Shown here: positions 3,645-20,979 of the stretch, one piece after another | How positions within the stretch are numbered: the first letter of the stretch is position 1 | How the letters are laid out: the number at the start of each line of letters is the position of its first letter | DNA from: Pseudomonas saliphila | GTDB taxonomy: Bacteria > Pseudomonadota > Gammaproteobacteria > Pseudomonadales > Pseudomonadaceae | DNA: 64,000 bases | Assembly: GCF_008638345.1 (NCBI RefSeq) | Contig: NZ_VTVA01000014.1 | Span: forward strand, 57,632-121,631 | Direction of reading: 5' to 3' | Program-made: the position numbers and the translations under genes | Notes under the pieces: model-generated | Seen by the model: only the letters and a program-made list of their open reading frames with translations | What the model was told of the DNA's origin: nothing | Database searches by the model: none

Positions 3645-6600
3645 ATGCATAGAAAAAACGCGGGTGCGAGTACCAAGGGCACACTTGGCCTCGACCCGAA
3701 AGTTGCTGCCAGTCTGGCGGCCGCCTTTGTATTCTTCGTTTTGAGCACAGCAGTTGCGATCTACACCACGCACCTTCTCGAATCGAGCAACGAGAAGGTG
3801 TTGCAGACACATAAGGTCATTGTCGCCATTGATCGTTTATTGGCGGATGTCCAAGATGCCGAAACGGGCCAGCGGGGATTCCTGCTCACCGGTGATGCGC
3901 GTTACCTCGAGCCCTATAACCGATCCGTTTCTCAGCTAAAAGCCCGGATGCAGGCGGTCGAGGACCTGATCGCGCAGAACGACGCGCAGCGCTGGCGTTT
4001 TGACGAACTGCAGGGGTACATCACCACCCGGTTCCAGGAGCTGGAACTCATATTGGGCATCTATCGGCGCGAAGGCCAGGAGGCAGCGATTGCCGGCGCG
4101 AATCTGGAGCGCGGCAAGGCAGAAATGGAGGCGATCCGCCAGGCAATTTCCGAGCTGGGCGAAGAGGAACGCGCATTGCGAGCACAGCGGGTGGACGCGA
4201 TGAACAAGGCCTATACGGTCACGTTCATTACCAGCGCGCTGTCCGGCTCGCTCGGCATAATCCTGACGCTCGTCCTCGCTGTCCTGATACGCAGAGCCAC
4301 TTTGGCGCGTCGTCGGGAGCAGTGGCTGCAGAACGCCCAGGTGGGTCTTGCGTCGGTGGTGATGGGCGAGCAGTCAACAAAGGAGTTGGGCCAGAACATC
4401 CTTCGTTTTCTTACCAATCATCTCGGTGCCGTGGCGGGTGCCATTTATTCACTGGACAACGGCCGGTACTCGCTGCTGGCCCGTTACGGCGTGCCCGAAA
4501 ACGGCACTCTTCCAGCGCATTTCGAGGGCAATGACAGTCTGTTTGCCCATGTACTGGAAGACCAGCGACCCATTACCGTCGGCGAACTCCCTGAAGGTTA
4601 CATCAGTTTCGGTTCCAGTCTGGGCCAGCAGACCCCGCGCTTCCTCGCGTTGGGTCCCGCGACGGTGGATGGCGAAATCAAAGCGCTGTTCGAGCTCGGG
4701 TTCCTTAATCCGGTAGGCGATAATGTGCTCTCTCTGCTGGAGGAATCATCCGGGACCATCGCCGCGGCGATCAGATCAGCCGAATTCCGCGCCCGACTCC
4801 AGTCACTGCTTGCCGAAACGCAGCGCCAGGCTGAAGAGATGCAGGTTCAAAGCGAAGAACTGCGGGTGTCCAACGAGGAGATGGAAGAGCAAGGCCGGGC
4901 TTTGAAGGAGTCCCAGGCGCGGCTGGAGCAACAGCAGGTCGAGCTGGAACAGACCAACGCGCAGCTGGAAGAACAGACGCAGGAGCTGGAAGGCCAGCGC
5001 GATGAGCTGGAAAAAGCCAACGTGGCGATTCAGCTGAAGGCGCAGGAGGTCGAACAGGCAAGCCGCTACAAGTCCGATTTTCTGGCCAATATGTCCCATG
5101 AACTGCGCACGCCGCTCAACTCTTCGCTGATTCTTGCCAAGTTGCTTGCCGACAATGCAGAAGAAAACCTCACGCCCGATCAGGTGAAATACGCCCAGAC
5201 CATTCAATCCTCGGGCAACGACCTGCTAAACATCATCAACGACATTCTGGATCTGTCGAAAATCGAGGCAGGCCATGTGGATGTTCGGCCCGAGCCGGTA
5301 TCGATCGAGCGCATGCTCAATTCCCTTCACCATCTTTTCGATCCGCTAGCCAACGACAAGGGGCTCGCATTTTCAGTGGAGCTCTCACCCGATGCCCCGC
5401 CCGCCATCGAAACCGACCCGCAGCGACTGGAACAGGTGCTCAAGAATCTGATCGCCAATGCGATCAAGTTCACCAACAAAGGCAGCGTAACCTTGACCCT
5501 GCGCGCGCTGAGCGACGATCAGATCGCCATTTCGGTAACCGACACCGGCATCGGCATTGCACCCGATCAGCAGGCGCGTATCTTCGAGGCCTTTCATCAG
5601 GCTGACAGCACCATCAGTCGCAGGTTTGGTGGCACCGGCCTGGGTCTGTCAATTTCCCGCGAAGTCGTCAGGCTGCTGGGCGGCACCCTTCAACTGAAAA
5701 GTCGCCCAGGATCGGGCAGCACCTTCACCGTGGTCATACCGCAGCGGTACCACGGCGCTGCCGTCAGCATGCGGGCGCCAGAAGCTCAGACCTCGCAGGT
5801 TGAACCCGGCTTTGCGATGCGGCCTGCCACACTGCCGTCGCGGCCGCAGCTGCAGAGCACAGGTGTGGTCGAAGATGATCGCATGAAGGGTGATGAAGCA
5901 GCCCGCAGGCTTTTGATCATCGAGGATGACCGAACCTTCGCACTGATCCTGCGCGACCTGGCGCGCGAGTCGAACTTCCTGGCACTGGTTGCCGAAACGG
6001 CGCACGAAGCGCTGGAGCTTGCGCGCCAGTTTCTGCCAAGCGCTATCGTACTGGACGTGGGATTGCCCGATCAGTCTGGTCTGTCCGTCCTCGATCGGCT
6101 CAAGCGCGACGTACGTACCCGCCACATTCCGGTGCATATCATCTCGGCCGACGACTATTCGGAACGCGCTCTGTCCCTGGGCGCTATCGGCTATGCGCTC
6201 AAGCCGGTACAACGCGAGCAACTGGTTGGAATGCTGCAAGCGCTCGAAGCGAAGATTTCGCAGAACCTGCGGCGCGTGCTGATCGTCGAGGATAATCAGG
6301 TGCAGCGTGAAGCAGTAAGCGAGCTGATCAGCTCGCACGACGTCGAAACGGTCGGCGCTGGCACCGCTGCCGAGTGCCTGGCGCTGCTCAAAGAGCAGAC
6401 GTTCGACTGCATGGTGCTCGACCTGTCGCTACCGGACGCCTCCGGGTTCGACCTGCTGGAGACCATAAGCCAGGACGCCGCACACTCCTTCCCGCCGGTC
6501 ATCGTTTACACCGGGCGCGTACTCACTCGCGAGGAAGAACAGACGCTGCGCAGCTATTCCAAGTCGATCATCATCAAGGGTGCGAAATCGCCAGAGCGGC

Positions 6601-7088
6601 TTTTGGACGAGGTATCGCTATTCCTGCATCAGGTGGTCTCGGAACTGCCGGACGAACAACAGAGAATGATTCGCAAGGCTCGCAACCGTGATGCGCTGCT
6701 GGAAGGCAAGCGCATCCTGATCGTGGAAGACGATGTGCGCAACGTCTACGCGCTGACCAACATCCTCGAACCCCGCGGGGCATTGATCGAGATCGCGCGT
6801 AATGGCGAAGAGGCGCTGCAGAAACTGGATCAGTCACTCAGCCAGCCGGAGCGTCACATCGATCTGGTGCTGATGGACATCATGATGCCAGTCATGGACG
6901 GCCTGACCGCGACTCGCCATATCCGCAAGAATCCGAACTGGAAGAAACTGCCTGTCATCGCGCTGACCGCGAAGGCCATGCCGGACGATCAACAGCGCTG
7001 CATCGAAGCGGGAGCCAACGATTACATGGCCAAACCGCTGGACGTAGAGAAGTTGCTGTCGCTGGTCCGGGTGTGGATGCCGCAATAA
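3645..7088 (+). CDS. CHASE3-GAF hybrid sensor histidine kinase with three C-terminal receiver domains
   Basis: The 1147-aa membrane protein begins with a transmembrane helix (about 22-45). A periplasmic CHASE3 sensor follows (about 46-185, with the [12 protein letters not shown] signature), then a second helix (about 195-217). Next come a GAF domain (about 235-375), a long Glu/Gln-rich coiled coil (about 383-475), a HisKA domain with phospho-acceptor His485 in MSHELRTPLN, and an ATPase domain (N box NLIANAIKFTN, G boxes DTGIGI and GGTGLGLS). Three receiver domains follow with phospho-acceptor Asp804, Asp926 and Asp1078. It is the first gene of a four-gene overlapping operon with cheR, cheB and a second kinase. 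There is no clear ribosome site before the ATG, so the exact start is less certain. The ligand is unknown. Confidence 0.9.
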   Translation: MHRKNAGASTKGTLGLDPKVAASLAAAFVFFVLSTAVAIYTTHLLESSNEKVLQTHKVIVAIDRLLADVQDAETGQRGFLLTGDARYLEPYNRSVSQLKARMQAVEDLIAQNDAQRWRFDELQGYITTRFQELELILGIYRREGQEAAIAGANLERGKAEMEAIRQAISELGEEERALRAQRVDAMNKAYTVTFITSALSGSLGIILTLVLAVLIRRATLARRREQWLQNAQVGLASVVMGEQSTKELGQNILRFLTNHLGAVAGAIYSLDNGRYSLLARYGVPENGTLPAHFEGNDSLFAHVLEDQRPITVGELPEGYISFGSSLGQQTPRFLALGPATVDGEIKALFELGFLNPVGDNVLSLLEESSGTIAAAIRSAEFRARLQSLLAETQRQAEEMQVQSEELRVSNEEMEEQGRALKESQARLEQQQVELEQTNAQLEEQTQELEGQRDELEKANVAIQLKAQEVEQASRYKSDFLANMSHELRTPLNSSLILAKLLADNAEENLTPDQVKYAQTIQSSGNDLLNIINDILDLSKIEAGHVDVRPEPVSIERMLNSLHHLFDPLANDKGLAFSVELSPDAPPAIETDPQRLEQVLKNLIANAIKFTNKGSVTLTLRALSDDQIAISVTDTGIGIAPDQQARIFEAFHQADSTISRRFGGTGLGLSISREVVRLLGGTLQLKSRPGSGSTFTVVIPQRYHGAAVSMRAPEAQTSQVEPGFAMRPATLPSRPQLQSTGVVEDDRMKGDEAARRLLIIEDDRTFALILRDLARESNFLALVAETAHEALELARQFLPSAIVLDVGLPDQSGLSVLDRLKRDVRTRHIPVHIISADDYSERALSLGAIGYALKPVQREQLVGMLQALEAKISQNLRRVLIVEDNQVQREAVSELISSHDVETVGAGTAAECLALLKEQTFDCMVLDLSLPDASGFDLLETISQDAAHSFPPVIVYTGRVLTREEEQTLRSYSKSIIIKGAKSPERLLDEVSLFLHQVVSELPDEQQRMIRKARNRDALLEGKRILIVEDDVRNVYALTNILEPRGALIEIARNGEEALQKLDQSLSQPERHIDLVLMDIMMPVMDGLTATRHIRKNPNWKKLPVIALTAKAMPDDQQRCIEAGANDYMAKPLDVEKLLSLVRVWMPQ

Positions 7089-7918
7089 TGGAAACGTTCG
7101 AAAAGATCGAAGACATCGAGATCCGCCTGCTGCTCGAAGCGCTGTACCACCGGTACCACTACGATTTTCGCCATTACGCGATGGCGTCGATCAGACGACG
7201 CTTACGGCAAGCGAAAGACAATCTGGGTTTTGCCACCATTTCAGCCATGCAGGAGCGGGTGCTGCATGATCCGGACATGTTGCCGCAAATGCTTCGCTAC
7301 CTGACGGTCCAGGTCAGTGAAATGTTCCGGGATCCGAGCTACTTTCAGGCGATTCGGCAGGCGGTGATTCCGCACCTGCGCACCTACCCTTCCCTTAAGG
7401 TCTGGGTTGCAGGCTGCAGTACCGGCGAGGAGCTGTATTCGCTGGTTATCCTCTTCCGCGAAGAAGGTCTCGAAGAGCGTACGCTGTTCTACGCCACTGA
7501 TATCAACCCGGAGGCATTGCATCAGGCCGAAACCGGTATCTACGATGCAGAACGCGTGCGGCAGTTTTCGGAAAACTATCGCCAGGCCGGCGGTAAGACG
7601 TCGCTATCCGATTATTATCACAGCCAATACAACCGCTGCATTCTGGATAAGAGCCTGCGTCGGAACGTGGTTTTTTCCGATCACAGCCTGGTGACCGATC
7701 AGGTCTTCGGTGAGATGCATCTGATATCGTGCCGCAATGTGATGATCTATTTCGACCGCAATCTGCAGGATCGCGCAGTGGGCCTGTTCAAGGAATCGTT
7801 GTCGCGACAGGGGTTTCTCGGCCTCGGTTCCAAGGAAAATCTCAGGTTTTCGACGCACGCCCATGCCTTCCGCGACTTCGTGCGTACCGAGAAAATTTAT
7901 CAGAGGAATGATTCATGA
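7088..7918 (+). CDS. cheR: CheR-type protein-glutamate O-methyltransferase
   Basis: The 276-aa protein has the two CheR modules: a helical N-terminal domain (about 5-75) and a Rossmann methyltransferase (about 80-275). The SAM-binding motif VAGCSTGEE and the late motif ISCRNVMIYFD are both visible. The ATG at 7088 overlaps the preceding TAA (TAATG), which supports this start over an upstream in-frame ATG at 7073. In chemotaxis CheR methylates receptor glutamates using S-adenosylmethionine. There is no receptor or cheA/cheW in this operon, so the substrate here is probably something else, possibly one of the adjacent kinases; this is inference. Similar kinase-CheR-CheB clusters are known in Pseudomonas and other Proteobacteria. 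Confidence 0.9.
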   Translation: METFEKIEDIEIRLLLEALYHRYHYDFRHYAMASIRRRLRQAKDNLGFATISAMQERVLHDPDMLPQMLRYLTVQVSEMFRDPSYFQAIRQAVIPHLRTYPSLKVWVAGCSTGEELYSLVILFREEGLEERTLFYATDINPEALHQAETGIYDAERVRQFSENYRQAGGKTSLSDYYHSQYNRCILDKSLRRNVVFSDHSLVTDQVFGEMHLISCRNVMIYFDRNLQDRAVGLFKESLSRQGFLGLGSKENLRFSTHAHAFRDFVRTEKIYQRNDS

Positions 7919-8487
7919 CCGGAGTGTCGAGGGGAGCGGTAATCATTGGTGCATCAGCAGGCGCACTCGAAGCGCTGTCCGTCCTCCTGCCTCCGCTCCC
8001 TGCCACATTCCCCCTGCCGATCTTTGTGGTCGTGCACGTCCCTTCGGACCAGCCCAGCGTGCTCGCTGATATCTTTGACCCCAAATGCAAGCTGCACGCG
8101 ATCGAGGCGGAAGACAAGGAACCCATCGTTCCTGGCGTCATATACTTCGCCCCGCCGGACTACCACATGCTGCTCGAAGACAAACAGACCATAGCGCTCT
8201 CGAATGAGGAAGCGGTGCTGTTCTCGCGCCCATCAATTGATGTAACGCTGGAAAGCGCGGCCGATGTGTGGGGGGAGCAGTTGATCGGCATCATTCTGAC
8301 AGGCGCCAATCAGGATGGCGCCCGGGGGCTGCAGGCTATTTCCGCAGCGGGCGGCATGGCGATCGTGCAGAGCCCCGTGGGCGCCTATGCCAGCGCCATG
8401 CCCGAAGCTGCCATCGCCGCCTGCCCACAGGCGCAGGTCATGTCGCTCAATGATATTTCCACTTACTTGTCGAGTATCTCCGGATGA
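7915..8487 (+). CDS. cheB: Stand-alone CheB methylesterase domain protein
   Basis: At 190 aa this is only the catalytic domain of CheB; the usual N-terminal receiver domain is absent. The expected catalytic triad can be placed: Ser14 in IGASAG, His41 in VVVHVP and Asp134 in TGANQDGA. CheB removes methyl groups from, or deamidates, receptor glutamate/glutamine residues and opposes CheR. The ATG overlaps the cheR stop (ATGA), and the next gene again overlaps (ATGA), indicating translational coupling. Without its own receiver domain, activity might be controlled by the neighbouring receiver-bearing kinases; that is inference. Confidence 0.9.
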   Translation: MTGVSRGAVIIGASAGALEALSVLLPPLPATFPLPIFVVVHVPSDQPSVLADIFDPKCKLHAIEAEDKEPIVPGVIYFAPPDYHMLLEDKQTIALSNEEAVLFSRPSIDVTLESAADVWGEQLIGIILTGANQDGARGLQAISAAGGMAIVQSPVGAYASAMPEAAIAACPQAQVMSLNDISTYLSSISG

Positions 8488-9656
8488 AGACACCCGTCAA
8501 ATTTCTCCTGGTCGATGATCTGCCAGAGAACCTGCTTTCTCTGGAGGCGCTTCTTCGTCGTGATGGGCTGATGCTGCTCATGGCAACGTCCGGTGACGAG
8601 GCGCTGGAGTTGCTGTTGGACCATGACGTGGCACTGGCACTGATCGATGTGCAAATGCCGGGGCTCAACGGTTTCGAGCTGGCCGAGCTGATGCGTGGCA
8701 ATGAGCGCACACGGCGGATCCCGATCATCTTCGTCACGGCAGGCACGCATAGCGCCGAACGCCGCTTTCAGGGTTACGAAGCCGGCGCAGTCGACTTCAT
8801 TCAGAAACCGATCGAGCCCGACATTCTGCGCAGCAAGACCGATGTCTTTTTCGAGCTGTTCCTCCAGCGGCAGTTGATTGCCGAGCAACGCGATCTGGTG
8901 CAGACACAGGCTGAGGCTCTGCTACGTTCGGACAAACGTAAGGATGAGTTTCTTGCGGTGCTGGCGCACGAACTACGCAATCCTCTGGCTGCACTTAACA
9001 GCGGGCTTGAACTGCTCGTGCGCAAACCGGATGAGCCGCAGGCTGGAAGAGTAAGGGCTCTGATGAAAGCGCAGATGTCGCATCTGGTTCGCCTGGTCGA
9101 CGATCTTCTGGACGCGTCGCGCGTGACGCAGGGCAAAATCGAACTTCGCGCAGCCGTGTGTGACTTGAGAGAGGCCGTGTGGGCGGCCGTCGATATGGCT
9201 AAGCCGGGGATCGAGGCGCAGGACCATACTCTTAGCGTGAATGTGCCCGACCACCCGGTCGAGCTGCTGGCCGATCAGGTTCGCATTACCCAATGCATCG
9301 CCAACCTGCTCAATAATGCGGCGAAATACACTCCCCGGGCCGGACGGATCGACGTCACGCTCGACAGTACGCCGACCACATCTCGCATTACTGTTACTGA
9401 TAATGGATTGGGCCTGACGCTGGATGCGTCAGCGGCGATCTTCCGCATGTTCGAGCAGGTCGAAGACCATCTGCGGCATGCGCATGGCGGACTCGGGATT
9501 GGCCTGGCCCTGGTCAAGCAGCTGGTTGAACTGCACGGCGGGACCATAAGCGTTACGAGTGAAGGACCGAACCAAGGCAGTGCCTTCACGCTTGAACTGC
9601 CCAAGGTCGTCACTCGAAGCGCCGCGCCTATCAAGCCCGGCGCTGTGCATGGTTGA
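8484..9656 (+). CDS. Response regulator-histidine kinase hybrid (REC-HisKA-HATPase)
   Basis: This soluble 390-aa protein has an N-terminal receiver domain (about 5-125, phospho-acceptor Asp55 in LIDVQMPG, conserved Lys in FIQKPIEP). A short coiled coil leads to a HisKA domain with His162 in LAHELRNPLAALN, and a C-terminal ATPase domain carries LLNNAAKYTP, DNGLGL and GGLGIGLALV. It has no membrane helix. The start overlaps the cheB stop by four bases. A receiver at the front suggests that the kinase is itself controlled by phosphotransfer, plausibly from the first gene's kinase. The stop codon lies only 16 bp from the remnant tRNA-Sec sequence, so this gene marks the end of the left block. Confidence 0.9.
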   Translation: MKTPVKFLLVDDLPENLLSLEALLRRDGLMLLMATSGDEALELLLDHDVALALIDVQMPGLNGFELAELMRGNERTRRIPIIFVTAGTHSAERRFQGYEAGAVDFIQKPIEPDILRSKTDVFFELFLQRQLIAEQRDLVQTQAEALLRSDKRKDEFLAVLAHELRNPLAALNSGLELLVRKPDEPQAGRVRALMKAQMSHLVRLVDDLLDASRVTQGKIELRAAVCDLREAVWAAVDMAKPGIEAQDHTLSVNVPDHPVELLADQVRITQCIANLLNNAAKYTPRAGRIDVTLDSTPTTSRITVTDNGLGLTLDASAAIFRMFEQVEDHLRHAHGGLGIGLALVKQLVELHGGTISVTSEGPNQGSAFTLELPKVVTRSAAPIKPGAVHG

Positions 9657-9672
9657 GACGTTGCGCATGTTC

Positions 9673-9718
9673 ACCGGAGTTGAAGTCCGGACGCCCCACC
9701 CGGGGCCGATGTTCTTCC
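9673..9718 (-). pseudogene. selC: 5' half of a selenocysteine tRNA gene (selC remnant)
   Basis: Read on the minus strand, this 46-nt stretch starts with the 8-nt acceptor strand GGAAGAAC. A D-arm hairpin follows (GCCCC-GGGU-GGGGC, 4-nt loop), then an anticodon arm CCGGA-CUUCAAC-UCCGG whose anticodon is UCA (9681-9683). Order, spacing and arm sizes follow Escherichia coli tRNA-Sec closely. It sits 18 bp after selB on the same strand, where selC could be expected. Beyond 9673 there is no recognisable long variable arm, no T-arm (TTCGA) and no GUUCUUCC to close the acceptor stem; the kinase gene begins there instead. It therefore appears truncated. Coincidence is unlikely given three matching arms, but no alignment could be run. 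Confidence 0.7.
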
Positions 9719-9735
9719 CTAACGGGTTGTTGCTT

Positions 9736-11637
9736 TCAGGCGCTGGTCTTCGGTGCTTCCTCTGCGTGCTGACGTTGCCAGGCCGATTGCAGGTAGCGTC
9801 GTTGCCGGCGATACCAGGTGACGCCGGCACGGTCGAGGTACTCCAGTACCTGTATGGTCAGGTTGCGGCCGATGCCTGACCTGTTGCGGTACTCGGCCGC
9901 AATAAAGCCGCCATCCTCGGATTCGCTACAGAGTGCAACGGCCACAGCGGCCAGCTGATCCAGTTGCTGTGGCAGATAAAAGCGGTTGGGCGCCACGCCC
10001 AGCAGATATCCCCAGGCTTGCATGCGGCGCATGAACATGAGCATGTCGTCGCGGCTGGTACCGAGCCGCTCTGCCAATTCACCAACGATAGGTGGCCGTA
10101 AATCTGCCTGGCTCAGTACAGCGGCGACCTGTTCCCAGAGAGCCACATCGGCGTCGGCAAGCTGCGGCTGGTGATCCGGCAAGGCGAAGATGCCGCCGTC
10201 CTGGCGCAACTGCTGTGTATCCACCAGACGCTTGAGTAGCAAGCCGCTAGTGGGTGGCGACAGCCCCAGTGCAGCGCGATTCAGGAGTACTTGCTGCGTC
10301 AGCCCGCGTTGCTCCGGCTGTTCGGCATGGCATTGCTGCAACGCAGTGACTATCGCCCGTTCGGCCTGCGCAACCCGCTGCGGATGCAGTGCCTGATCCC
10401 CGAGACGCACCACCGGAGAAGGGTTCAGGACGGTCGCCAGCGCTGTGTCGGTCAATTGCCAGCGCAGAGCAAAGGCGGATATCGCCACTTCGCTCTGATG
10501 TTCAAGTTCTATTGCCAGCGCCTCTATCGGCGACGTGACACCATGCAGGGCGGCTAAGCGGGCAAGATTGTCCGGCTTACTGCGCCCGCGTTGGCGGCCC
10601 AGCGGGTCAATCACTATGCCGCCGCCGAGCGTCTGGTTCGCAGCCGGCTCGCGTACGATCACACAATCTCCCACCACGACATGTACGGGTTGGTCGAGCA
10701 ATACCTGGGCGAGCTCTGCCGTTTCATCCAGCCAGACCACGCGCCCGCTGGTGGCCGTGGCGCCGGTCAGAATCTGCAAGGTGCCGCGGTGCAGGCGCAT
10801 ACCGCCTAAAAGGCCTAGGGAGATATCCAGTCGATCGGTCAGTTGGTGCATGGCGGGATCGAGTAGCCAGTCACCGCGCTGGGGGTGCTCGGCGTCCAGC
10901 TCACCCGCAAGGTTCAGTGCGGCTCTTTGACCTGCCTGCAGGCGGTTTACTGGCTGGCCAGCCTGCTGCATGCCGCGAATCCGCACCTTGCGCGCGTCCG
11001 GCGTCAGACACAGCTGATCTCCCGTACGCATCCCGCCCTTAAGCAAGGTCCCGGTGACCACGCAGCCACTGCCAGTAACGCTGAAACGGCGGTCGACCAG
11101 AAAGCGCGGTGGCCCTGAAGCATCGTTTGGATCAGCGTTATGTGCGAATTGCTGAATGGCCTGACGGAGGGCGTCCATGCCCTCTCCGGTCAGAGTGGAA
11201 ACCTCTAGCGTCGGGTGCCCGGCGAATGCAGTGCCCTGAACCAGTTCGGCGACGGCCTGCCGCGTGGCTTCCAGCTGGTCAGTACTGGCGCGGTCGATTT
11301 TGCTTATCACCACTCGCCCATGGGCAATGCCCAGCAGGTTCAGCAGTGCCAGATGTTCACGGGTTTGCGGCATCGGCCCATCGTCAGCCGCCACCACCAG
11401 CAGGGCCGCGTCAGCCCCGGCCAAGCCAGCCAGCATGGTGCGAATAAAGCGTGCATGCCCGGGCACATCGACAAAGGCAAGCGGCCCCAGTTGCGGGTCA
11501 TCCAGCCAGGCAAAGCCGAGATCGATGGTCAGGCCACGGCGCTGCTCATCGGGCAGCTGGTCGGTGTCCTTGCCGGTCAGTGCCTTGATCAAGGCGGTCT
11601 TGCCGTGGTCCACGTGCCCGGCTGTGGCAATAATCAC
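9736..11637 (-). CDS. selB: Selenocysteine-specific translation elongation factor SelB
   Basis: SelB is the dedicated GTPase that carries selenocysteyl-tRNA to the ribosome at UGA codons preceding a SECIS hairpin. The 633-aa protein starts at a GTG and has G1 GHVDHGKT (7-14), G3 DVPGH (57-61) and SKID (112-115, the G4 variant). Beta-barrel domains follow, and the C-terminal half is built of winged helices that bind SECIS RNA in known SelB proteins. It lies directly downstream of the UGA-containing gene on the same strand, 69 bp after that gene's stop, suggesting co-transcription. selA is not in the window. The protein is intact and of normal length, although the adjacent selC copy looks broken. 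Confidence 0.95.
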   Translation of the reverse strand: MIIATAGHVDHGKTALIKALTGKDTDQLPDEQRRGLTIDLGFAWLDDPQLGPLAFVDVPGHARFIRTMLAGLAGADAALLVVAADDGPMPQTREHLALLNLLGIAHGRVVISKIDRASTDQLEATRQAVAELVQGTAFAGHPTLEVSTLTGEGMDALRQAIQQFAHNADPNDASGPPRFLVDRRFSVTGSGCVVTGTLLKGGMRTGDQLCLTPDARKVRIRGMQQAGQPVNRLQAGQRAALNLAGELDAEHPQRGDWLLDPAMHQLTDRLDISLGLLGGMRLHRGTLQILTGATATSGRVVWLDETAELAQVLLDQPVHVVVGDCVIVREPAANQTLGGGIVIDPLGRQRGRSKPDNLARLAALHGVTSPIEALAIELEHQSEVAISAFALRWQLTDTALATVLNPSPVVRLGDQALHPQRVAQAERAIVTALQQCHAEQPEQRGLTQQVLLNRAALGLSPPTSGLLLKRLVDTQQLRQDGGIFALPDHQPQLADADVALWEQVAAVLSQADLRPPIVGELAERLGTSRDDMLMFMRRMQAWGYLLGVAPNRFYLPQQLDQLAAVAVALCSESEDGGFIAAEYRNRSGIGRNLTIQVLEYLDRAGVTWYRRQRRYLQSAWQRQHAEEAPKTSA

Positions 11638-11706
11638 TGGCGCGCCTGCCGCTGGGCCGGGAAGGAACCGTTCAGTGCTCCAATCAGTACATAGCGCGCT
11701 GAACCT

Positions 11707-12246
11707 TCAAGGTTCGCCAGCCGCTCCTTCGGCACGCAATAGCCGCAGGATGTCGCCCAACGCGTCATCGGCCAATGTGCGCATTTCGGCGTCGGTGCGG
11801 TCCTGAATCGGATGCGGCACAAAGACCATGGCCGGATCGAACCCCAGCGCTCTGGACTGCATTGCCGCTGCTTCAACAAATTCACTGGAGGCGACCCCTA
11901 CTCCTGGGATCTGACGTGACTCCAGATCGGCGATGTCATGCATACAGCACGACGTGCACGATCCTCAGTCGGCCAGACCTTCCACCAGCAGATCCACTTC
12001 AGCGGCAATCTGTTGTTTGAGTTCGGTCGGCGCAACACGGGTAAAGGTCGGCTTGGCGTAACGCTTGACCTCGATGCCCATTCCACTCAGTTGCTCCTCA
12101 ATCCGATCGAGGAACACGTTGCCACGCGGCTTGGAGATATCCAGCAGGCCAACGACCTTGCCGTTCAGGCTGTCTGGCCGCGCCAGACGCGCTCGCTCGG
12201 CTGGCGCGCGCTCGGCCGTGGGGTCGAGCAATATGCTTTCGTTCAT
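11707..12246 (-). CDS. UGSC-family selenoprotein with in-frame UGA (Sec94)
   Basis: One continuous frame of 179 residues is interrupted only by a TGA at 11965-11967, residue 94. Reading through gives LVEGLAD-U-GSCTSCC, the D-U-G-S-C signature for which the UGSC (seleno)protein family is named. The sequence after the UGA is clearly coding (MHDIADLESRQIPGVGVAS). The N-terminal half holds a Rossmann-like beta strand, GKVVGLLDISKPRGN. The start ATG overlaps the TGA of the upstream thioredoxin-like gene by four bases. UGSC proteins are predicted redox proteins without an established reaction. Read as an ordinary stop, the UGA would leave a 93-aa fragment lacking the active-site motif. Nearby selB supports recoding, while the truncated tRNA-Sec beside it raises doubt about whether Sec is still inserted. 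Confidence 0.88.
11936..11961 (-). promoter_or_regulatory. Candidate bacterial SECIS hairpin after the UGA
   Basis: Starting 4 nt after the UGA, UCGUGCA can pair with UGCAUGA (7 bp including one G-U), enclosing a 12-nt loop that contains GU. A small alternative inside it, GCAC-GUC-GUGC, recalls the apical GCA-GGUC-UGC of E. coli fdhF. The loop is nearer to the UGA than in E. coli. A second perfect 6-bp hairpin (GAUCUG/CAGAUC, 11908-11928) lies further away. Which of these SelB would bind cannot be decided by eye. Confidence 0.4.
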
Positions 12247-13679
12247 GATGTCACCTCGCAGGTTACCGGTGATGAGCCCACCGGGCCGGATGCGGCCCAG
12301 CCGGCGATAATGGCAGAAAACAGGCCGGCGGTGCCGCCAACCCGCACAATCAACAGGCCGCCAGGGCGGAACTTGGGTACCTGTTTATCTTTAAAACGAT
12401 CTGGAATGCCTTCGGCAATCCCGCCGGCGCCGGCCACCAGATCGGCGCCCGGCGCCAGCAGCAGTTGTTCCAGTTCTTCACGCAGACGCTGCTTGGACCA
12501 GCCAGCCTCGATGAACACGCGCGCATGCTCGGGTGATACCGCCAGCACCGCATCGCCGGCCATGGCCAACTTGGCGTGATCGACCGTGCGCAGCGACAGC
12601 GCGAAAGAGCGCGCCAGCGATTCGGGATCGCGGGACTTCTGATCGACAATGCCCTGCACGCCCTCCCCTGGAAACAGCGTGACAGCAGAGCGGCCAGCCG
12701 GAACGCCGCGCTCCTGTGCCAGAGACAACCAGTCGCTGTCTTCGGCTTCGGCAAAACAGAAGCTGTATTTGCCAGGATTGCCCATGGTCGAGCGATCAAT
12801 CTCACCCGGCCGGCCGCCACCCACATTGCGCACGATCAATTGCAGCGCGCGGCCAATGGTGGCATTGGCGCGGTTGCCCTGCCCTAACGCATTGACGCCG
12901 GAGTTCATGCCGATAGCCTTGGCAATGGGGCCGTTGACCACAATCATCGGGCTGCCAAACATGGTGGTACAGGTCAGCCCGTGCAAACCGAACTCATCGG
13001 TCAAGGCTGCCTCGACGGCGGCGAGAAGCACCGGCATATATTCCGGCTTGCAGCCCGCCATCACGGCATTGATCGCTACTTTTTCCACGGTGCAGGGCAC
13101 CAGATCAGGCGGCATCAAGCCCAGCACTTCATCCCCGGCGCGCTCGGTGCCCTTGAGCATGCGCAGCACGCGCACCGGGGTTGGCGGTACGACCGGCAGA
13201 CCATCACTCCAGCCACGCTCATAGCAGGCCTCGATGGCATCATCCGCACTGCTTATATCAATTTCCCGCGACTGCAGCTGCACATTACCAAAGGCCAGTT
13301 CCAGCTCCTCGGCAATGCCCGGATCCAGGGTTTTGGAACCGCAACCGGGTCGCATGACGGGTAAGTCTTCGCCCAGAGCGCCAAGGCCGGACAGCGCGCG
13401 CCAATCCTCTTTATGCCAGCCGTAGGTACGCTCGACCTCCACGCCCCGCTCCACCCGAATCAGCGTCGGCACAAACTCGATGCCCAACCGAAAGGATTGC
13501 TCCAGCGTCCGGTCATACCGGGTGCCAGGCAAGGCAGCGGCGTAGTCTTCGGAATCCTGCACCAGCACCGTCAGCGGCCCGGCCTGGTCCAGCTCTGCCA
13601 GCAAAGGCTCAATCAGGCGGCAGGTCGGGCAATCGGCTTTGGCAACTACGATCAGCCCATCGGGTAGAGATAAAGTCAT
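12243..13679 (-). CDS. Thioredoxin-like protein paired with the UGSC selenoprotein
   Basis: The 478-aa protein has an N-terminal thioredoxin-like domain (about 8-95). It shows a CPTC active-site motif at residues 17-20 and the VPT cis-proline segment followed by a Gly-rich turn. The longer C-terminal region begins with ERGWSDGLPVVPPT (about 170) and continues through cysteine-containing stretches (TCTTMFGSPM, PGKYSFCF) to a Gly-rich end. This region is the kind found next to, or fused with, UGSC-type proteins; no enzyme activity is established that I can name. Its TGA overlaps the selenoprotein ATG (ATGA), so the two are translationally coupled and probably work together, perhaps with the CPTC domain reducing the Sec centre. 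That role is inference. Confidence 0.7.
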   Translation of the reverse strand: MTLSLPDGLIVVAKADCPTCRLIEPLLAELDQAGPLTVLVQDSEDYAAALPGTRYDRTLEQSFRLGIEFVPTLIRVERGVEVERTYGWHKEDWRALSGLGALGEDLPVMRPGCGSKTLDPGIAEELELAFGNVQLQSREIDISSADDAIEACYERGWSDGLPVVPPTPVRVLRMLKGTERAGDEVLGLMPPDLVPCTVEKVAINAVMAGCKPEYMPVLLAAVEAALTDEFGLHGLTCTTMFGSPMIVVNGPIAKAIGMNSGVNALGQGNRANATIGRALQLIVRNVGGGRPGEIDRSTMGNPGKYSFCFAEAEDSDWLSLAQERGVPAGRSAVTLFPGEGVQGIVDQKSRDPESLARSFALSLRTVDHAKLAMAGDAVLAVSPEHARVFIEAGWSKQRLREELEQLLLAPGADLVAGAGGIAEGIPDRFKDKQVPKFRPGGLLIVRVGGTAGLFSAIIAGWAASGPVGSSPVTCEVTS

Positions 13680-13861
13680 GTCAGGCCTATTGGCTGCTCG
13701 TACGTGTCTCGGTAGAAAGACAGCATAGGCAGCCAGGCATGTGCTGCCAAGCGAGCGAGCGTGATCATGCGTTGGGTGATTGGGCAGGTATCAGTGCTGC
13801 AAGGGTGGGCCCGGTTTTGCTCACACGCTAGGCGACAGCCTGATCGTTGTTGCCCTGTGGA

Positions 13862-14461
13862 TCAGCAGGTTGGGGGAACGCCAGTCTCCCACTTGAGCTC
13901 GCCCCGGGTGATCGACAAGAGCTGCTCCCGCAGCGCCCCGGCTGCGGTGGTGGGCAGGCGCACTTGCAACCGCACTGCTTGTCCATGGCTGACTGCAAGC
14001 AGCTCGCCGCCGAGCTCCGTAATGAGGTTGCGCGCCATTCCTTCGTGGGCATAGGCCAGCTCGCAGTACAGCGTCTGGCTGGGGATGTGCTCGACTTTTT
14101 CAGCCTGCAACAGCGCTTGGGCGACGGCATCGGTGTAGGCACGCACCAGTCCTCCGGCGCCCAGCTTGATCCCACCGAAATAGCGCACCACTGCGGCCAG
14201 CACGCCGTCTAGCTCCTGGTGACGCAATACTTCGAGCATCGGGCGGCCCGCTGTCCCCGAGGGCTCACCATCGTCCACTGCCGCGCTATGCCCGCCAGCC
14301 AACAGTGCCCAGCACACATGAGCGCAGCCGGGATGCAGCATGCGCAGCTCGTTCACCCGAGCCTGCGCCGCGGCGCGATCGGCGACGGGTTCGACGAAGG
14401 CGAGAAAGCGACTTTTCCGGATTTCCAGAATACTGGTAACGGGGTAAGCAAGACTGTACAT
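13862..14461 (-). CDS. yigZ: YigZ/IMPACT family protein
   Basis: This 199-aa protein carries the IMPACT (UPF0029) N-terminal fold, with the family motifs KSRFLAFVEPV, DDGEPSGTAGRPML and YFGGIKLGAGGLVRAY. A short C-terminal ferredoxin-like domain follows (about 135-199). The family is related to eukaryotic IMPACT, a regulator of translation stress kinases; the bacterial role is unresolved, with nucleic acid or ribosome binding proposed. The start is placed at 14461 because MYSLAYPV matches the usual family N terminus; a longer frame extends upstream without family similarity. It stands alone upstream of the selenium operon on the same strand, separated by 182 bp. Confidence 0.9.
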   Translation of the reverse strand: MYSLAYPVTSILEIRKSRFLAFVEPVADRAAAQARVNELRMLHPGCAHVCWALLAGGHSAAVDDGEPSGTAGRPMLEVLRHQELDGVLAAVVRYFGGIKLGAGGLVRAYTDAVAQALLQAEKVEHIPSQTLYCELAYAHEGMARNLITELGGELLAVSHGQAVRLQVRLPTTAAGALREQLLSITRGELKWETGVPPTC

Positions 14462-14609
14462 GGCGCCAGCATAACCCGGCGTCAGCTGTGCATACAGTAT
14501 GTGGCGCGAAGCTCTCACAGAGCCCACAGCTTGCATACGGAACCATGCCACCGATTACAAACCGGTGCGCAGGAAAAAACGGTCAGGCTTATTTTCCGGA
14601 TCGAACGAC

Positions 14610-14660
14610 CGCTTCGGCCGATAGTAGACGCAGACGTAAGTCCGCGTTCGGCCAGAAGCG
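14610..14660. repeat. Imperfect palindromic intergenic element
   Basis: CGCTTCGGCCGA (14610-14621) is inverted at TCGGCCAGAAGCG (14648-14660) with one bulged base, giving a 12-bp stem around a 26-nt spacer. A diverged relative appears to lie near 19700-19756, upstream of the GST gene, sharing GACCGATAG at one end and CCAGAAGCGGACATTC at the other. This looks like an interspersed element rather than a gene part. Confidence 0.45.
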
Positions 14661-14763
14661 CACAGTCGCTACGAGATAAATAAATCTGTTCCCTTTTGTC
14701 CTGAGAACAGAACCGAGCGGAAAATCTGATTTCATTTTCTCGACACCCAGCGTTTTTAGGGTT

Positions 14764-14791
14764 GCGCGGCGGCCCGTCAGGACCGCCGCGC
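14764..14791 (-). terminator. Hairpin after katG
   Basis: GCGCGGCGG (14764-14772) pairs perfectly with CCGCCGCGC (14783-14791) over a 10-nt loop, 8 bp past the katG stop. The following U tract on the minus strand is poor, so this could be an RNA-stabilising hairpin or a weak terminator. Confidence 0.5.
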
Positions 14792-14799
14792 TCCTTACA

Positions 14800-17420
<2,621 letters not shown>

Positions 17421-19466
17421 TTACAACCTGAACTGTGAAACTTCGTCATTGAGCCTGACGGCTAGCTCGGAAAGCTCTTCTGTCGCTTGAGCAATCTGTT
17501 TTGCCGCCATACCAGTCTGCTCGGATTGATTCCGAATTTCGTTGGCTCTTTCGCTGACCTCCGTGGACGTGGCACTTTGTTGCTCGGCTGCGCTAGCAAT
17601 CTGGGTGGTCATGTCCGTGATGTTCTGGACTGCGGTCTGAACATCAATTAACGCCTGTGCAACTTCCTTTGTCTGTTCAGCAACTTTTTCTGACTGCTTT
17701 TGACCCGAAGCCATGCTCTGTACGGATGCTCTAGCCTTTTCCTGTACTGTCACGATCATGTCGGCTATATCGGAGGTCGAACTCTGGGTATTTTGTGCAA
17801 GAGAACGTACCTCATCTGCAACCACAGCGAAGCCCCTACCGTGTTCTCCAGCGCGAGCGGCCTCAATCGCTGCGTTCAGAGCAAGCAGATTTGTCTGGTC
17901 AGCGATGCCTTTTATAACGTCCAGGATCTGAGAAATGCTGTCTGCACTTGATGCGAGCCCCTGAATTTCCGTGGAGGTTTCGTCCAAGGTCCTCGCCAGG
18001 ATTTGCATCTCTGTGGCCACGAACTGTGTTCGTTTATTGGCAGACTCCACAATTGAACTAGCTAGCGTCGCAGATTCTGCGGCACCCACAGTATTCTGGG
18101 CCACTTCGGCGGCGGTTGCCTGCATCTCATCGATCGCAACGGCGACCTGATCAGTGGATTGCTGCTGCTCGTGCACGCTCTGACTTGTCTGTTCAGCAAT
18201 GGCTGCCAATTCTGCTGCAGCTGCAGACTGAGACTTGGCCGAGTCACCAATTTTCATCAGCATCGCCTTTAAACGTTCCGACATGTCTCGCATGGCGGCG
18301 TAGATGCCGGTTTCACTGCCTGTGTCAGCGAGTTCCACCGTCAAGTCGCCATCGGCAATCTGCCGAGATATCCGCTCAAGATCTGAGGGTTCCCCGCCCA
18401 CCTGACGACGGATGTTCCGGGTAATGAGAAAGCCGATTATTGCCACAATAAGGGCAGCGATAACCGTACCGCCGATGGAGATCGTTATGGTTCGTGATGC
18501 AATGTCTGACGCTTCTTTCTGGCGAGCATCAATCAGTCTGGCTTCTTCGTCGATGAACTCATCGACTGCCGCGCGAATGGCATCCATGTGGCGTTTGCCC
18601 GTGCCCTTTTCAATCAATGCCGTGACATCGTCCATGGTAGCGGTGGCCTGATTCATCTCACGGCGAGCTTCGATCTCTGGAATAGCGGCTTCGGACGCCC
18701 AGCCTCTCGCTTTGTTCACGGCACCTGTGAGTGCTTCGGTGATTGATGAGGTGCTGTACGGCGCTCGATCCAAATGAGCGCGAAGCCCTTCCACTTCGCG
18801 TTCAAGCGCTTCCGCACCCAGCTTGAAAGGCTGCAGAGATGCCTCTTGCCCTGAGAGGAGAAAGCCTCTTTGGCCCGTCTCCTGATTAACCATGGCCAAA
18901 AGTATATTCTGAACAATCGTAAGGGCAGCCTGGTCATTTACCGCGTTCAGCCTGGCTTTGACCTCTGAGAGGTCTGCACGAAAGCCATCAAACATCTCCT
19001 TGCCAACCGTTCGGGATGAAAGCTCCCTGAACCTTTTAGTAGCTGCTTCATTTTTTGCGACTTCCCTGCGCATATCAATTTGCGGTTTTGCCTCTTCAAC
19101 TTGCCAGGTTTTCTGCAGCAGATCGATATCCTCAAGTCGTTTGACTTGTATGGGGTTATCGCTAACGGTTTGCTTCAGACCATTGATCGTCTTCTCGTAT
19201 GTAGTCTGCCCCTGGATGTAGGGCTCCAGAAAACCATCGTCTCCGGCGATGAGGAAGCCCCGCATACCGGTTTCCATGTCGACCATGCTGCTGAGTATGG
19301 ACTTGCCTTCCGCAATGACCTTATGGGTGTGGTCAACCCAACGGTTGGCTTCCAACAGCGAGACCATGCTGGTGAATATGGTTACCGCAATGAAAACCAT
19401 AGCCACGACCGGGATCGCAAACCCAAGCGCCAATTTGGTGCTCAGTTTGATTTGATTCAATTTCAT
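17421..19466 (-). CDS. Methyl-accepting chemotaxis protein with CHASE3-type sensor
   Basis: The 681-aa receptor has an N-terminal membrane helix (about 12-35) and a long periplasmic helical sensor that seems to contain two CHASE3-like modules. Each carries a version of the signature: [14 protein letters not shown] near residue 78 and [14 protein letters not shown] near 198. A second membrane helix (about 337-360) leads to a HAMP domain and a cytoplasmic signalling hairpin with the conserved tip ([20 protein letters not shown]). There is no C-terminal CheR/CheB-docking pentapeptide; the protein ends VSQFRL. The start at 19466 is preferred because [12 protein letters not shown] has receptor character and is preceded by AGGTA; the frame also extends upstream. 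The ligand is unknown. Confidence 0.92.
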
Positions 19467-19855
19467 GCTTAGGTACCTGAAACAGGATTGCACACAAATC
19501 CGGACATCTGCCGGGGAATTACGCTCACGAATCTGCGGCTTAGATCTCTGGTACGGCAGCACGCGGCACTAGGAGGATTTATCGGCGACGGGGGAGCCGA
19601 CTTTAATCGAAATGCTCGATACTCCAAGCTCGATCCTCCCAGTAGCACCGGCGCCTTGATGTTTGAGGACTGATCGGAGTTGGCCGTGAACTGAACTCAA
19701 GCGACCGATAGCTGCCTGCCGCTGCTGGCGACTTTCGCCCCAGAAGCGGACATTCCATGGTGCCTGCGAAACCAGCAGCGATCCACAATTAATCGCCTGT
19801 TAGGCAATCGGGCGCTAGTATGCCCGGTGGCGATCTACTCAGTCAGGAAGCAAAT
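19467..19855. other. Intergenic region between the chemoreceptor and GST genes
   Basis: About 390 bp without a believable gene. The segment around 19700-19756 looks like a diverged copy of the palindromic element at 14610-14660. It should also hold the divergent promoters of the chemoreceptor and GST genes, which I could not place. Confidence 0.4.
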
Positions 19856-20512
19856 ATGTCCGGTTCACTACCCCGTTTGTACTCCTTCCGCCGTTGTCCT
19901 TACGCGATGCGCGCTCGATTAGGCCTGTTGTTTGCAGAGCTGCAGGTGGAGCTGCGGGAGATCGTGCTGAAAAACAAGCCAGCGCAGATGTTGGCTATCA
20001 GTCCCAAAGGCACGGTTCCTGTCCTGGAACTGGCTGAGGACGACAGCGCTGAGCGACGCATAATCGAGGAAAGCAGGGAAATACTGGAATGGGCGCTGCG
20101 ACAGAATGATCCGCAAGGTCTGTTGAACGTCGACTTAGTAAGCGCTAATAGCCTGATCGACCAGAACGATAACGAATTCAAACATTGGCTGGATCGCTAC
20201 AAATACGCCGATCGCCATCCGGAGTTGACCCAGTCAGAGTATCGGCAAAAGGGAGAAGTATTTTTGCAGGCGTTGGAGCAGTTACTCGCAAAGAACAGGT
20301 ATCTGCTGGGAAGTAATATCAGCATCGCGGATATCGGTATCATGCCGTTTGTTCGCCAGTTCGCCCATGTCGATCAGGAGGTGTTTTACAACCTGCCCTA
20401 TCCACATCTACAGCAATGGCTGAGGGATTGGCTGGCGAACCCGGTTTTTCAGCAAGTGATGATCAAGTTCCAGCCCTGGCAGGAAGGCGATGAAATGGTG
20501 GTGTTTCCGTAG
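19856..20512 (+). CDS. Glutathione S-transferase family protein
   Basis: The 218-aa protein has a thioredoxin-fold N-terminal domain (about 6-85) with RRCPYAMRAR, where Cys14 sits at the glutaredoxin-like active-site position. The glutathione-binding segment KGTVPVLEL follows, then an all-helical C-terminal domain (about 95-215). A CPY motif is more typical of Grx2-like, omega-class or dehydroascorbate-reductase-type GSTs than of Ser/Tyr enzymes, so a thiol transferase role is plausible. The start at 19856 follows CAGGAAG at good spacing; an upstream in-frame ATG adds 12 unlike residues. A strong terminator follows. The substrate is unknown. Confidence 0.88.
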   Translation: MSGSLPRLYSFRRCPYAMRARLGLLFAELQVELREIVLKNKPAQMLAISPKGTVPVLELAEDDSAERRIIEESREILEWALRQNDPQGLLNVDLVSANSLIDQNDNEFKHWLDRYKYADRHPELTQSEYRQKGEVFLQALEQLLAKNRYLLGSNISIADIGIMPFVRQFAHVDQEVFYNLPYPHLQQWLRDWLANPVFQQVMIKFQPWQEGDEMVVFP

Positions 20513-20563
20513 GGCGGCACGTGAGGGCGAGTTTGAGCGTCTGGGCATTACACCCCGCTCACA

Positions 20564-20609
20564 AAAATGCCCCGAATCAACCCTTCTCAGGTTGCGGGGC
20601 ATTTTGTTG
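20564..20609. terminator. Strong bidirectional terminator between GST and tRNA-Ser
   Basis: AAAATGCCCCG (20564-20574) pairs with CGGGGCATTTT (20595-20605), and CAACC pairs with GGTTG inside the loop. A and T runs flank the stem on both strands, so it can end the GST transcript on the plus strand and the tRNA-Ser transcript on the minus strand. Confidence 0.85.
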
Positions 20610-20656
20610 ACTCTAAACCGAATAGCGCTATAAGCTATTGATTTACAAGGAAATAG

Positions 20657-20747
20657 TGGCGGAGGGACAGGGATTCGAACCCTGGGTAGGCTATTAACCT
20701 ACGCCGGTTTTCAAGACCGGTGCATTCAACCGCTCTGCCATCCCTCC
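20657..20747 (-). tRNA. tRNA-Ser(UGA)
   Basis: On the minus strand a 91-nt cloverleaf begins GGAGGGA and closes with TCCCTCC plus discriminator G and encoded CCA. The anticodon arm is CGGTC-TTGAAAA-CCG in context, giving anticodon TGA. The long variable arm (GTAGGTTAATAGCCTAC) is typical of serine tRNA, and the T-arm carries GGGTTCGAATCCC. The location next to the YccA-like gene matches the Pseudomonas arrangement. Confidence 0.97.
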
Positions 20748-20979
20748 ACGGCCGGCAATACTACCGGAAACTTCATTTCAGTCAATGGTCTAAGCGCTGG
20801 TTATGGCAAATTCCTCGCAAACTGTTGTCACAGCTCTGTGCAGTCGCCTTGTCGCACTCTGTGACAAAAGCGAGGCGTGCAATATGCCAGCAAGGGGCGG
20901 GAATTCTTGATTTGAGGTCACTAACCGGTATGATCGAACCGATTAAAGGACCTCTTGTTTGCAACCTTGGAGCTTGAAC

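What the first reader, a model, noticed from the sequence alone, without database searches (positions are those of the whole stretch)
11707..12246. UGSC-family selenoprotein with in-frame UGA, invisible to ordinary gene calling
On the minus strand a single frame of 179 residues is broken only by TGA at 11965-11967. Read as selenocysteine it gives LVEGLAD-U-GSCTSCC, the D-U-G-S-C motif naming the UGSC family. Sequence on both sides is coding in character, the start overlaps the upstream gene, and selB follows. Standard pipelines would report two small hypothetical proteins or a 93-aa truncation.
Basis: partly seen in the sequence, partly recalled or inferred. Interest (0 to 1): 0.9.

Follow-up and report, generated by a model that had tools for sequence, protein, structure and literature searches.

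The report
UGSC selenoprotein with its own SelB
A gene interrupted by an in-frame UGA encodes a member of the known UGSC selenoprotein family, is predicted to be read through as selenocysteine, and lies next to one of this genome's two divergent selenocysteine elongation factor genes, which likely serves it.

Summary
On the minus strand, 11707-12246 is one 179-codon frame broken only by TGA at 11965-11967. Read through, it passes the Pfam and NCBIfam UGSC cut-offs. The codon is TGA in 93 of 93 loci read (own included); 17 of 20 database homologues that run through it have Cys. A conserved hairpin follows, with compensatory changes, and the genome has selA, selB, selD and tRNA-Sec. It is almost certainly a selenoprotein, of a family known at least since 2008 but without a known function.

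Beyond the finding: (1) a partner protein (thioredoxin-like domain plus an unclassified domain) adjoins UGSC in 90 of 93 loci, and a distant genome has 16 UGSC copies, 14 read as in-frame fusions to that domain, each with U-x-x-C; the two likely form one redox enzyme. (2) The predicted UGSC fold is flavodoxin/CheY-like. (3) This genome has two SelBs (39% identical), one beside UGSC, one beside tRNA-Sec and a Sec formate dehydrogenase; 29 other SelB genomes examined have one each. Two separate recoding channels in one cell is testable but unproven, with some evidence against.

The parts
11707..12246 (-). UGSC family selenoprotein gene, 179 residues with Sec predicted at residue 94
   Evidence: PF24696 139.7 bits (cut-off 25), NF041046 147 bits (cut-off 125); single in-frame TGA
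11965..11967 (-). in-frame UGA, predicted selenocysteine codon (residue 94)
   Evidence: TGA in 93 of 93 loci at this codon, own included
11956..11958 (-). codon of Cys97, second half of the U-x-x-C motif
   Evidence: invariant column in the 50-sequence alignment A2; Cys at +3 in 14 of 14 fused paralogues of G449 read
11935..11953 (-). SECIS-like hairpin: 7-bp stem, 5-nt loop UGUAU, starting 14 nt after the U of UGA
   Evidence: RNAalifold and compensatory pairs, pair counts, covariance model trained without the genus hits 11967-11923 at 67 bits
12243..13679 (-). partner protein, 478 residues: N-terminal thioredoxin-like domain plus a ~340-residue domain without a Pfam model (called UAD here)
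   Evidence: upstream of UGSC on the same strand in 90 of 93 loci; Trx fold of residues 1-99
13383..13679 (-). thioredoxin-like domain of the partner (residues 1-99) with the C-P-T-C motif
12249..13265 (-). UAD, the UGSC-associated domain of the partner (about residues 139-477)
   Evidence: found fused to UGSC in one frame in G449; no Pfam family
12243..12246 (-). ATGA stop/start overlap of partner and UGSC
   Evidence: 4-nt overlap in 60 of the 90 loci with a partner
9736..11637 (-). selB-2, selenocysteine-specific elongation factor next to UGSC
   Evidence: TIGR00475 406 bits; tree placement; a second selB lies at G000:C34:19866-21743

Best explanation
The frame at 11707-12246 encodes a UGSC-family protein whose in-frame UGA is predicted to be decoded as selenocysteine through the conserved hairpin just downstream, likely by the neighbouring SelB. 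The protein is likely the Sec (catalytic or redox) subunit of a two-module enzyme: UGSC carries a U-x-x-C pair (Sec94, Cys97), and the upstream partner brings the UAD domain plus, in this lineage, a thioredoxin-like C-x-x-C domain that would reduce the Sec-Cys pair. Shown by sequence: family membership, TGA conservation, the hairpin with compensatory changes, the conserved gene pair, the fused forms elsewhere, and the Sec machinery with two SelBs. Inferred: actual Sec insertion, electron flow from the partner's thioredoxin domain to UGSC, and which SelB serves which mRNA. The substrate is unknown; my guess is that each UGSC/UAD enzyme reduces a particular small molecule, because a distant genome carries 16 diversified copies.
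For: UGSC models above cut-off. TGA at the same codon in 93 of 93 loci, own included. Cys in 17 of the 20 listed homologues that run through the site. dN 0.062-0.129 before the TGA and 0.045-0.059 after it, against dS 0.55-1.79, in six comparisons. Hairpin: 97.1% of cells paired, 8 cells changed on both sides (shuffled mean 2.3, 0 of 500 as high); more stable than synonymous-codon randomisations, mean z -2.4, z below -1.5 in 65 of 82; a model trained without the genus hits the UGA at 67 bits, E 2.6e-15, next best in the window 13.7 bits, though that model also learns the coding sequence. Machinery: one tRNA-Sec, one selA, one selD and two selB above cut-off. Partner adjacent in 90 of 93 loci. 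In-frame UGSC-UAD fusions in G449, U-x-x-C in 14 of 14 read. Partner N-terminus of Trx fold.
Against: No experiment shows Sec insertion. Two alphaproteobacterial loci (L076, L089) have UGSC without a recognisable partner in the DNA held. The outermost stem pair fails in 11 of 82 distinct sequences; the number of pairs with double changes is only weakly above shuffles (39 of 500 as high) and the number of pair types not at all (475 of 500). The hairpin model recognises few of the hairpins of the distant G449 copies. The G449 fusions, G209 and one of the two G431 copies have UAD matches that start after the Trx domain, so the Trx domain is not always part of the unit. Three of the 20 run-through homologues have Trp or Arg, not Cys, at the Sec position.
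Confidence: 0.82

Rival explanations
1. The TGA is an ordinary stop: the 93-residue protein is the real product and the downstream half is a relic or a separate small protein.
For: 96 of 120 listed database homologues end exactly at ...LAD, and a separate ATG opens the second half at 11943.
Against: The downstream half is under purifying selection, matches the second half of the family model, carries residues invariant across Sec and Cys homologues, and 20 of the 120 listed homologues run straight through with Cys (17), Trp (2) or Arg (1).
Confidence: 0.03
2. UGSC is a thioredoxin-fold antioxidant protein, as suggested in the 2008 marine metagenome paper, with no dedicated partner.
For: U-x-x-C motif; [quoted passage not shown]
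Against: The AF2 model (mean pLDDT 91) alternates five strands with helices and its best structural matches are flavodoxin-, CheY- and PurE-like alpha/beta proteins (Foldseek TM-scores only about 0.4); the partner is adjacent in 90 of 93 loci.
Confidence: 0.1
3. UGSC works like the selenoprotein subunit of glycine/proline reductase (GrdB/PrdB): Sec attacks the substrate and a second subunit completes a reductive cleavage.
For: Recalled, not tested: GrdB/PrdB also act with a second subunit. PMC2398784 lists PrdB with UxxC (passage).
Against: No match to PF07355 (GRDB) among the 11 Pfam families hit by the 50 members of A2 at E up to 10. A direct profile comparison could not be made.
Confidence: 0.2
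4. The second SelB is redundant: either SelB can serve both mRNAs and the extra copy came along with the formate dehydrogenase cluster.
For: One tRNA-Sec, one SelA and one SelD serve both. SelB-1 pairs with the SelB of a genome of another genus that has two Sec formate dehydrogenases, so it may have been acquired with fdh. Both loops hold a GU, and UGSC hairpins of some other lineages (e.g. L080) have AGUCU, as in formate dehydrogenase hairpins. Of the 10 SelB positions that separate the two sets, only 2 lie in residues 560-633.
Against: Both SelB frames are intact though only 39% identical; the own hairpins differ (UGUAU against GGUCU); the UGSC hairpin model matches no formate dehydrogenase UGA site at E up to 10.
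Confidence: 0.45

Closest known systems
UGSC family (seleno)protein, Pfam PF24696 / NCBIfam NF041046
   Same: Sequence match over the whole length, Sec at the D-U-G-S-C motif, conserved codon TGA, Cys homologues
   Different: Nothing basic; this member sits in a genome with a second SelB
Sec formate dehydrogenase FdnG/FdhA with its SECIS and SelB
   Same: Hairpin immediately after an in-frame UGA; one copy in the same genome
   Different: Unrelated protein; own loop GGUCU against UGUAU, although UGSC hairpins elsewhere can have AGUCU; the adjacent SelB is of another clade
Glycine/proline reductase selenoproteins GrdB/PrdB
   Same: U-x-x-C (PrdB, passage); works with a second subunit (recalled)
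   Different: No Pfam PF07355 match; partner has a Trx domain and an unclassified domain
UGSC/Unknown_1 fusion of PMC2398784
   Same: UGSC fused to an uncharacterised domain, reported in 2008 (passages seen)
   Different: Whether Unknown_1 is the UAD domain seen here could not be checked (supplement not available)

Membership tests
UGSC family | score above curated cut-offs of PF24696 and NF041046 | tested here: met
   139.7 bits against 25 and 147 bits against 125
UGSC family | Sec or Cys at the U/C-G-S-C motif | tested here: met
   TGA in 93 of 93 loci; Cys in 17 of 20 listed run-through homologues, Trp in 2, Arg in 1
bacterial selenoprotein | hairpin (SECIS) shortly after the UGA | tested here: met
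   SelB binding itself not tested
bacterial selenoprotein | selA, selB, selD and tRNA-Sec in the same genome | tested here: met
bacterial selenoprotein | selenium present in the product | not testable with these tools
   needs 75Se labelling or mass spectrometry
thioredoxin fold (proposed for UGSC in 2008) | Trx-fold topology | tested here: inconclusive
   AF2 model has five strand-helix units and matches flavodoxin/CheY/PurE-like chains best; absence of Trx rows does not exclude it
glycine/proline reductase GrdB/PrdB | PF07355 match | tested here: not met
   not among the 11 families matched by the 50 members of A2 at E up to 10
SelB | TIGR00475 above cut-off, GTPase and C-terminal winged-helix domains | tested here: met
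   406 bits against 242; PF00009, PF09106 and PF09107 matched
clade of SelBs next to UGSC | groups with SelBs downstream of UGSC on the same strand, apart from SelBs of formate-dehydrogenase genomes | tested here: met
   27 such rows on one side of a branch, support 99/98. But SelBs of other UGSC genomes lie outside it: L073, L155 and L161 just outside (80/90) and L163 of G449 on a long branch

The most novel reading that the evidence does not exclude
This bacterium runs two parallel selenocysteine-insertion channels that share one SelA, one SelD and one tRNA-Sec: SelB-1 reads the GGUCU hairpin of formate dehydrogenase mRNA and SelB-2 reads the UGUAU hairpin of UGSC mRNA, so that the two selenoproteins can be rationed separately when selenium is short. 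It would be a natural pair of orthogonal SelB/SECIS systems.
Probability: 0.3. Interest if true: 0.8.

Novelty: new member of a known kind. Interest (0 to 1): 0.5.

Why it matters
UGSC proteins are among the most abundant selenoprotein families of the 2008 ocean survey (PMC2398784, passages), and a 2026 review still counts them among families whose functions are largely uncharacterised (PMC13188914, passages). The conserved partner and the in-frame UGSC-UAD fusions turn this into a concrete question: purify the pair and look for a thioredoxin-driven reductase. The two-SelB genome offers a natural test of whether SelB/SECIS pairs can be orthogonal in one cell, which bears on the rationing of selenium and on engineered Sec insertion. 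Because most of the listed predicted proteins stop at the UGA (96 of 120), the family is also widely mis-annotated.

Tried and rejected
Ordinary stop codon: rejected. GrdB/PrdB homology: no PF07355 match; a genome search for PF07355 did not complete, the cap being used for other searches. Relatives of the UAD domain: no Pfam family; Foldseek gave weak class I fumarase matches (probability 0.60-0.80, TM-score about 0.2) that I do not trust; the tool says its VIA rows span residues 1-99, so the UAD part is barely tested. The UGSC profile matches no PDB chain by sequence better than E 0.43. Rfam listed no SECIS-type family in 5000-20800 at E up to 1. Contamination as the source of the second SelB: pieces of contig C34 match the window's tetranucleotide make-up (0.968 and 0.970; another piece of the window 0.976; two unrelated genomes 0.81) and C34 also carries fabA-fabB, so I think it unlikely; a congener also scores 0.941, so a close relative as the source is not excluded. 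Conserved neighbours in the 80 genome-contig loci plus the window: apart from partner (67 loci), selB (20), selA (19) and an ORF antisense to UGSC (30), no cluster occurs in more than 15 loci (ORFs under 100 residues not looked at, many loci cut by contig ends). Neighbours of the G449 fusions (10 proteins tried: PQQ dehydrogenase, FAD oxidoreductases, aldo/keto reductase and others, 3 without a family) gave no single substrate.

Full report
Observation. The minus-strand frame 11707-12246 is open for 179 codons except for one TGA at 11965-11967. It starts within the stop of the upstream ORF (ATGA, 12243-12246) and is followed after 69 nt by selB. Both halves match the UGSC models on their own, and the read-through protein passes both curated cut-offs.

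Is the TGA a Sec codon? A scan of genome contigs gave 563 relatives, of which the best 80 were kept, so near relatives are favoured; the same-family search gave 13 loci, own included, all in one genus (13 of 119 genomes). In all 93 the codon at this place is TGA. Of 190 database homologues 120 were listed: 20 run through the site, with Cys in 17, Trp in 2 and Arg in 1; of the other 100, 96 end exactly at ...LAD before the UGA. Both sides of the TGA evolve under purifying selection (dN 0.062-0.129 before, 0.045-0.059 after, dS 0.55-1.79, six comparisons). The nearest named relatives are Halopseudomonas, so the genome is probably of that genus (inferred).

Hairpin. Starting 14 nt after the U of UGA there is a 7-bp stem with a 5-nt loop (UGUAU in the window). 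Over 82 distinct sequences (of 93) the six inner pairs hold in 80 to 82 and the outer pair in 71; changes on both sides occur at the outer pair (G-C to A-U, 11 sequences) and at the closing pair (C-G to U-A, 3 sequences). On 45 distinct sequences from L043-L105 the counts exceed shuffles for cells paired, cells with double changes and covariation score (0 of 500 each), but hardly for the number of pairs with double changes (39 of 500) and not for pair types (475 of 500). The region folds better than synonymous-codon randomisations (mean z -2.4; 65 of 82 below -1.5); the window's 59-nt stretch has z -2.5. A covariance model trained without the genus finds it at 67 bits, E 2.6e-15, the next hit in the window being 13.7 bits, and finds the hairpin in 12 of 12 congeneric loci. 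That model also learns the coding sequence, so it is not independent of protein conservation. In 31 further loci it recognises the two G431 copies (62.6 and 40.1 bits) but only three G449 sites at E below 0.05, and no formate dehydrogenase UGA site at E up to 10.

Machinery. The genome has one tRNA-Sec, one selA, one selD and two selB above cut-off. selB-1 (C34:19866-21743) lies beside tRNA-Sec and a formate dehydrogenase with one in-frame TGA, followed by its beta and gamma subunits and fdhE. selB-2 is the one in the window. The other 12 genomes of the genus each have one selB and one selA at E 1e-60, and none has this formate dehydrogenase at E 1e-100. In 11 of the 12 the coordinates place selA and selB directly after UGSC; in G066 they are on another contig and UGSC lies at a contig end, so its order cannot be read. 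In the 80 genome-contig loci, selB follows on the same strand in 22 (many contigs end before). In a class-wide sample 18 of 369 genomes, own included, have a SelB at E 1e-60, and only the own genome has two. Of the 30 SelB genomes examined, only the own one has both UGSC and this formate dehydrogenase.

Two SelBs. In a tree of 45 SelBs, the 27 that I labelled as downstream of UGSC on the same strand fall on one side of a branch (99/98), while SelB-1 pairs with that of a genome of another genus in the same family (67% identity). (The label includes the SelB of G066, whose adjacency cannot be read.) Against a simple picture: L073 (SelB beside UGSC on the other strand), L155 and L161 (UGSC genomes) lie just outside that clade (80/90), L163 of the UGSC-rich G449 is on a long branch elsewhere, and SelB-2 itself groups with Pseudohongiella-type SelBs rather than with its congeners, so transfer has occurred. 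The two SelBs are 48% identical over residues 1-260 but 26% over the winged-helix part. I compared the 27 with 9 of the 10 SelBs from formate dehydrogenase genomes (the long-branched L148 was left out): 10 positions separate them, 4 in residues 1-260, 2 in 261-370, 2 in 371-559 and 2 in 560-633; one is the GRK motif of the last winged helix, K in 9 of 9 and N in 24 of 27. So the differences are not concentrated in the RNA-binding end. Formate dehydrogenase hairpins were read in 8 of 12 loci (L174 gave a chance match, three gave none): the apex is AGGUCU or AAGUCU, against UGUAU in the window; but UGSC hairpins of other lineages such as L080 have AGUCU. The two-channel reading therefore rests on one genome, on adjacency and on the own loops; after this check I lowered its probability from 0.35 to 0.3 and raised the redundancy rival from 0.4 to 0.45.

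Partner. The 478-residue upstream protein is on the same strand before UGSC in 90 of 93 loci (L038 begins inside UGSC; L076 and L089 lack it in the DNA held), with a 4-nt overlap in 60 of 90. Residues 1-99 have a thioredoxin-like fold with a C-P-T-C motif whose two cysteines are invariant in 35 sequences. The rest has no Pfam family. In one distant genome, G449, 16 UGSC matches occur, each with one TGA; 14 scored above my 15-bit threshold and were read in one frame with a following UAD domain, each with one TGA and a Cys three residues after it, the motif otherwise varying (UGSC, USTC, USSC, USLC, UNGC, UDGC). The other two have both matches in the same frame by coordinates. Several of these start like secreted proteins (by eye). 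Fusion and conserved pairing argue that UGSC and UAD act together; variable x residues with fixed U and C argue for a U-x-x-C redox pair.

What is known. UGSC-containing proteins: 255 selenoproteins and 21 Cys homologues in the 2008 ocean survey (PMC2398784, passages); among the families of unclear function in a 2026 review (PMC13188914, passages); in Geodermatophilaceae, whose tRNA-Sec has anticodon CUA, UGSC selenoproteins occur (PMC5330540, one passage); also named in PMC9312934 and PMC7539508 (passages). Searches for reports of two SelBs in one genome found none (empty; the 7 papers matched on other terms; listing only) in the held open-access library; absence there is weak evidence.

Verdict. 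The finding is correct, and the gene is a new member of a known family. The added value lies in the two-module architecture, the fold, and the second SelB.

Noticed in passing
G000:C34:19866-21743 and window 9736-11637: Two divergent selB genes in one genome, each beside a different selenoprotein gene; 12 of 12 congeners have one.
   Followed up: yes
L195-L209 (genome G449): Sixteen UGSC copies in one gammaproteobacterial genome, 14 of them read as in-frame UGSC-UAD fusions with a TGA each; several with signal-peptide-like starts (by eye), some near PQQ or FAD oxidoreductases.
   Followed up: partly
window 11638-11706: selA is missing between UGSC and selB here, whereas 11 of 12 congeners have selA there; the only selA of this genome is on contig C34, beside fabB.
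   Followed up: partly
P0002, P0003, P0005: Database homologues with Trp (2) or Arg (1) at the Sec position, on contigs of about 1 kb; sequencing errors or real losses of Sec.
   Followed up: no
P0040: A 202-residue ORF on a 268-kb contig in which the C-terminus of the partner runs in frame into the start of UGSC (by eye): a possible fusion in the opposite order to that of G449.
   Followed up: no
window 14800-17034: A long minus-strand ORF that looks like a catalase-peroxidase (KatG), by eye only, near the UGSC locus.
   Followed up: no
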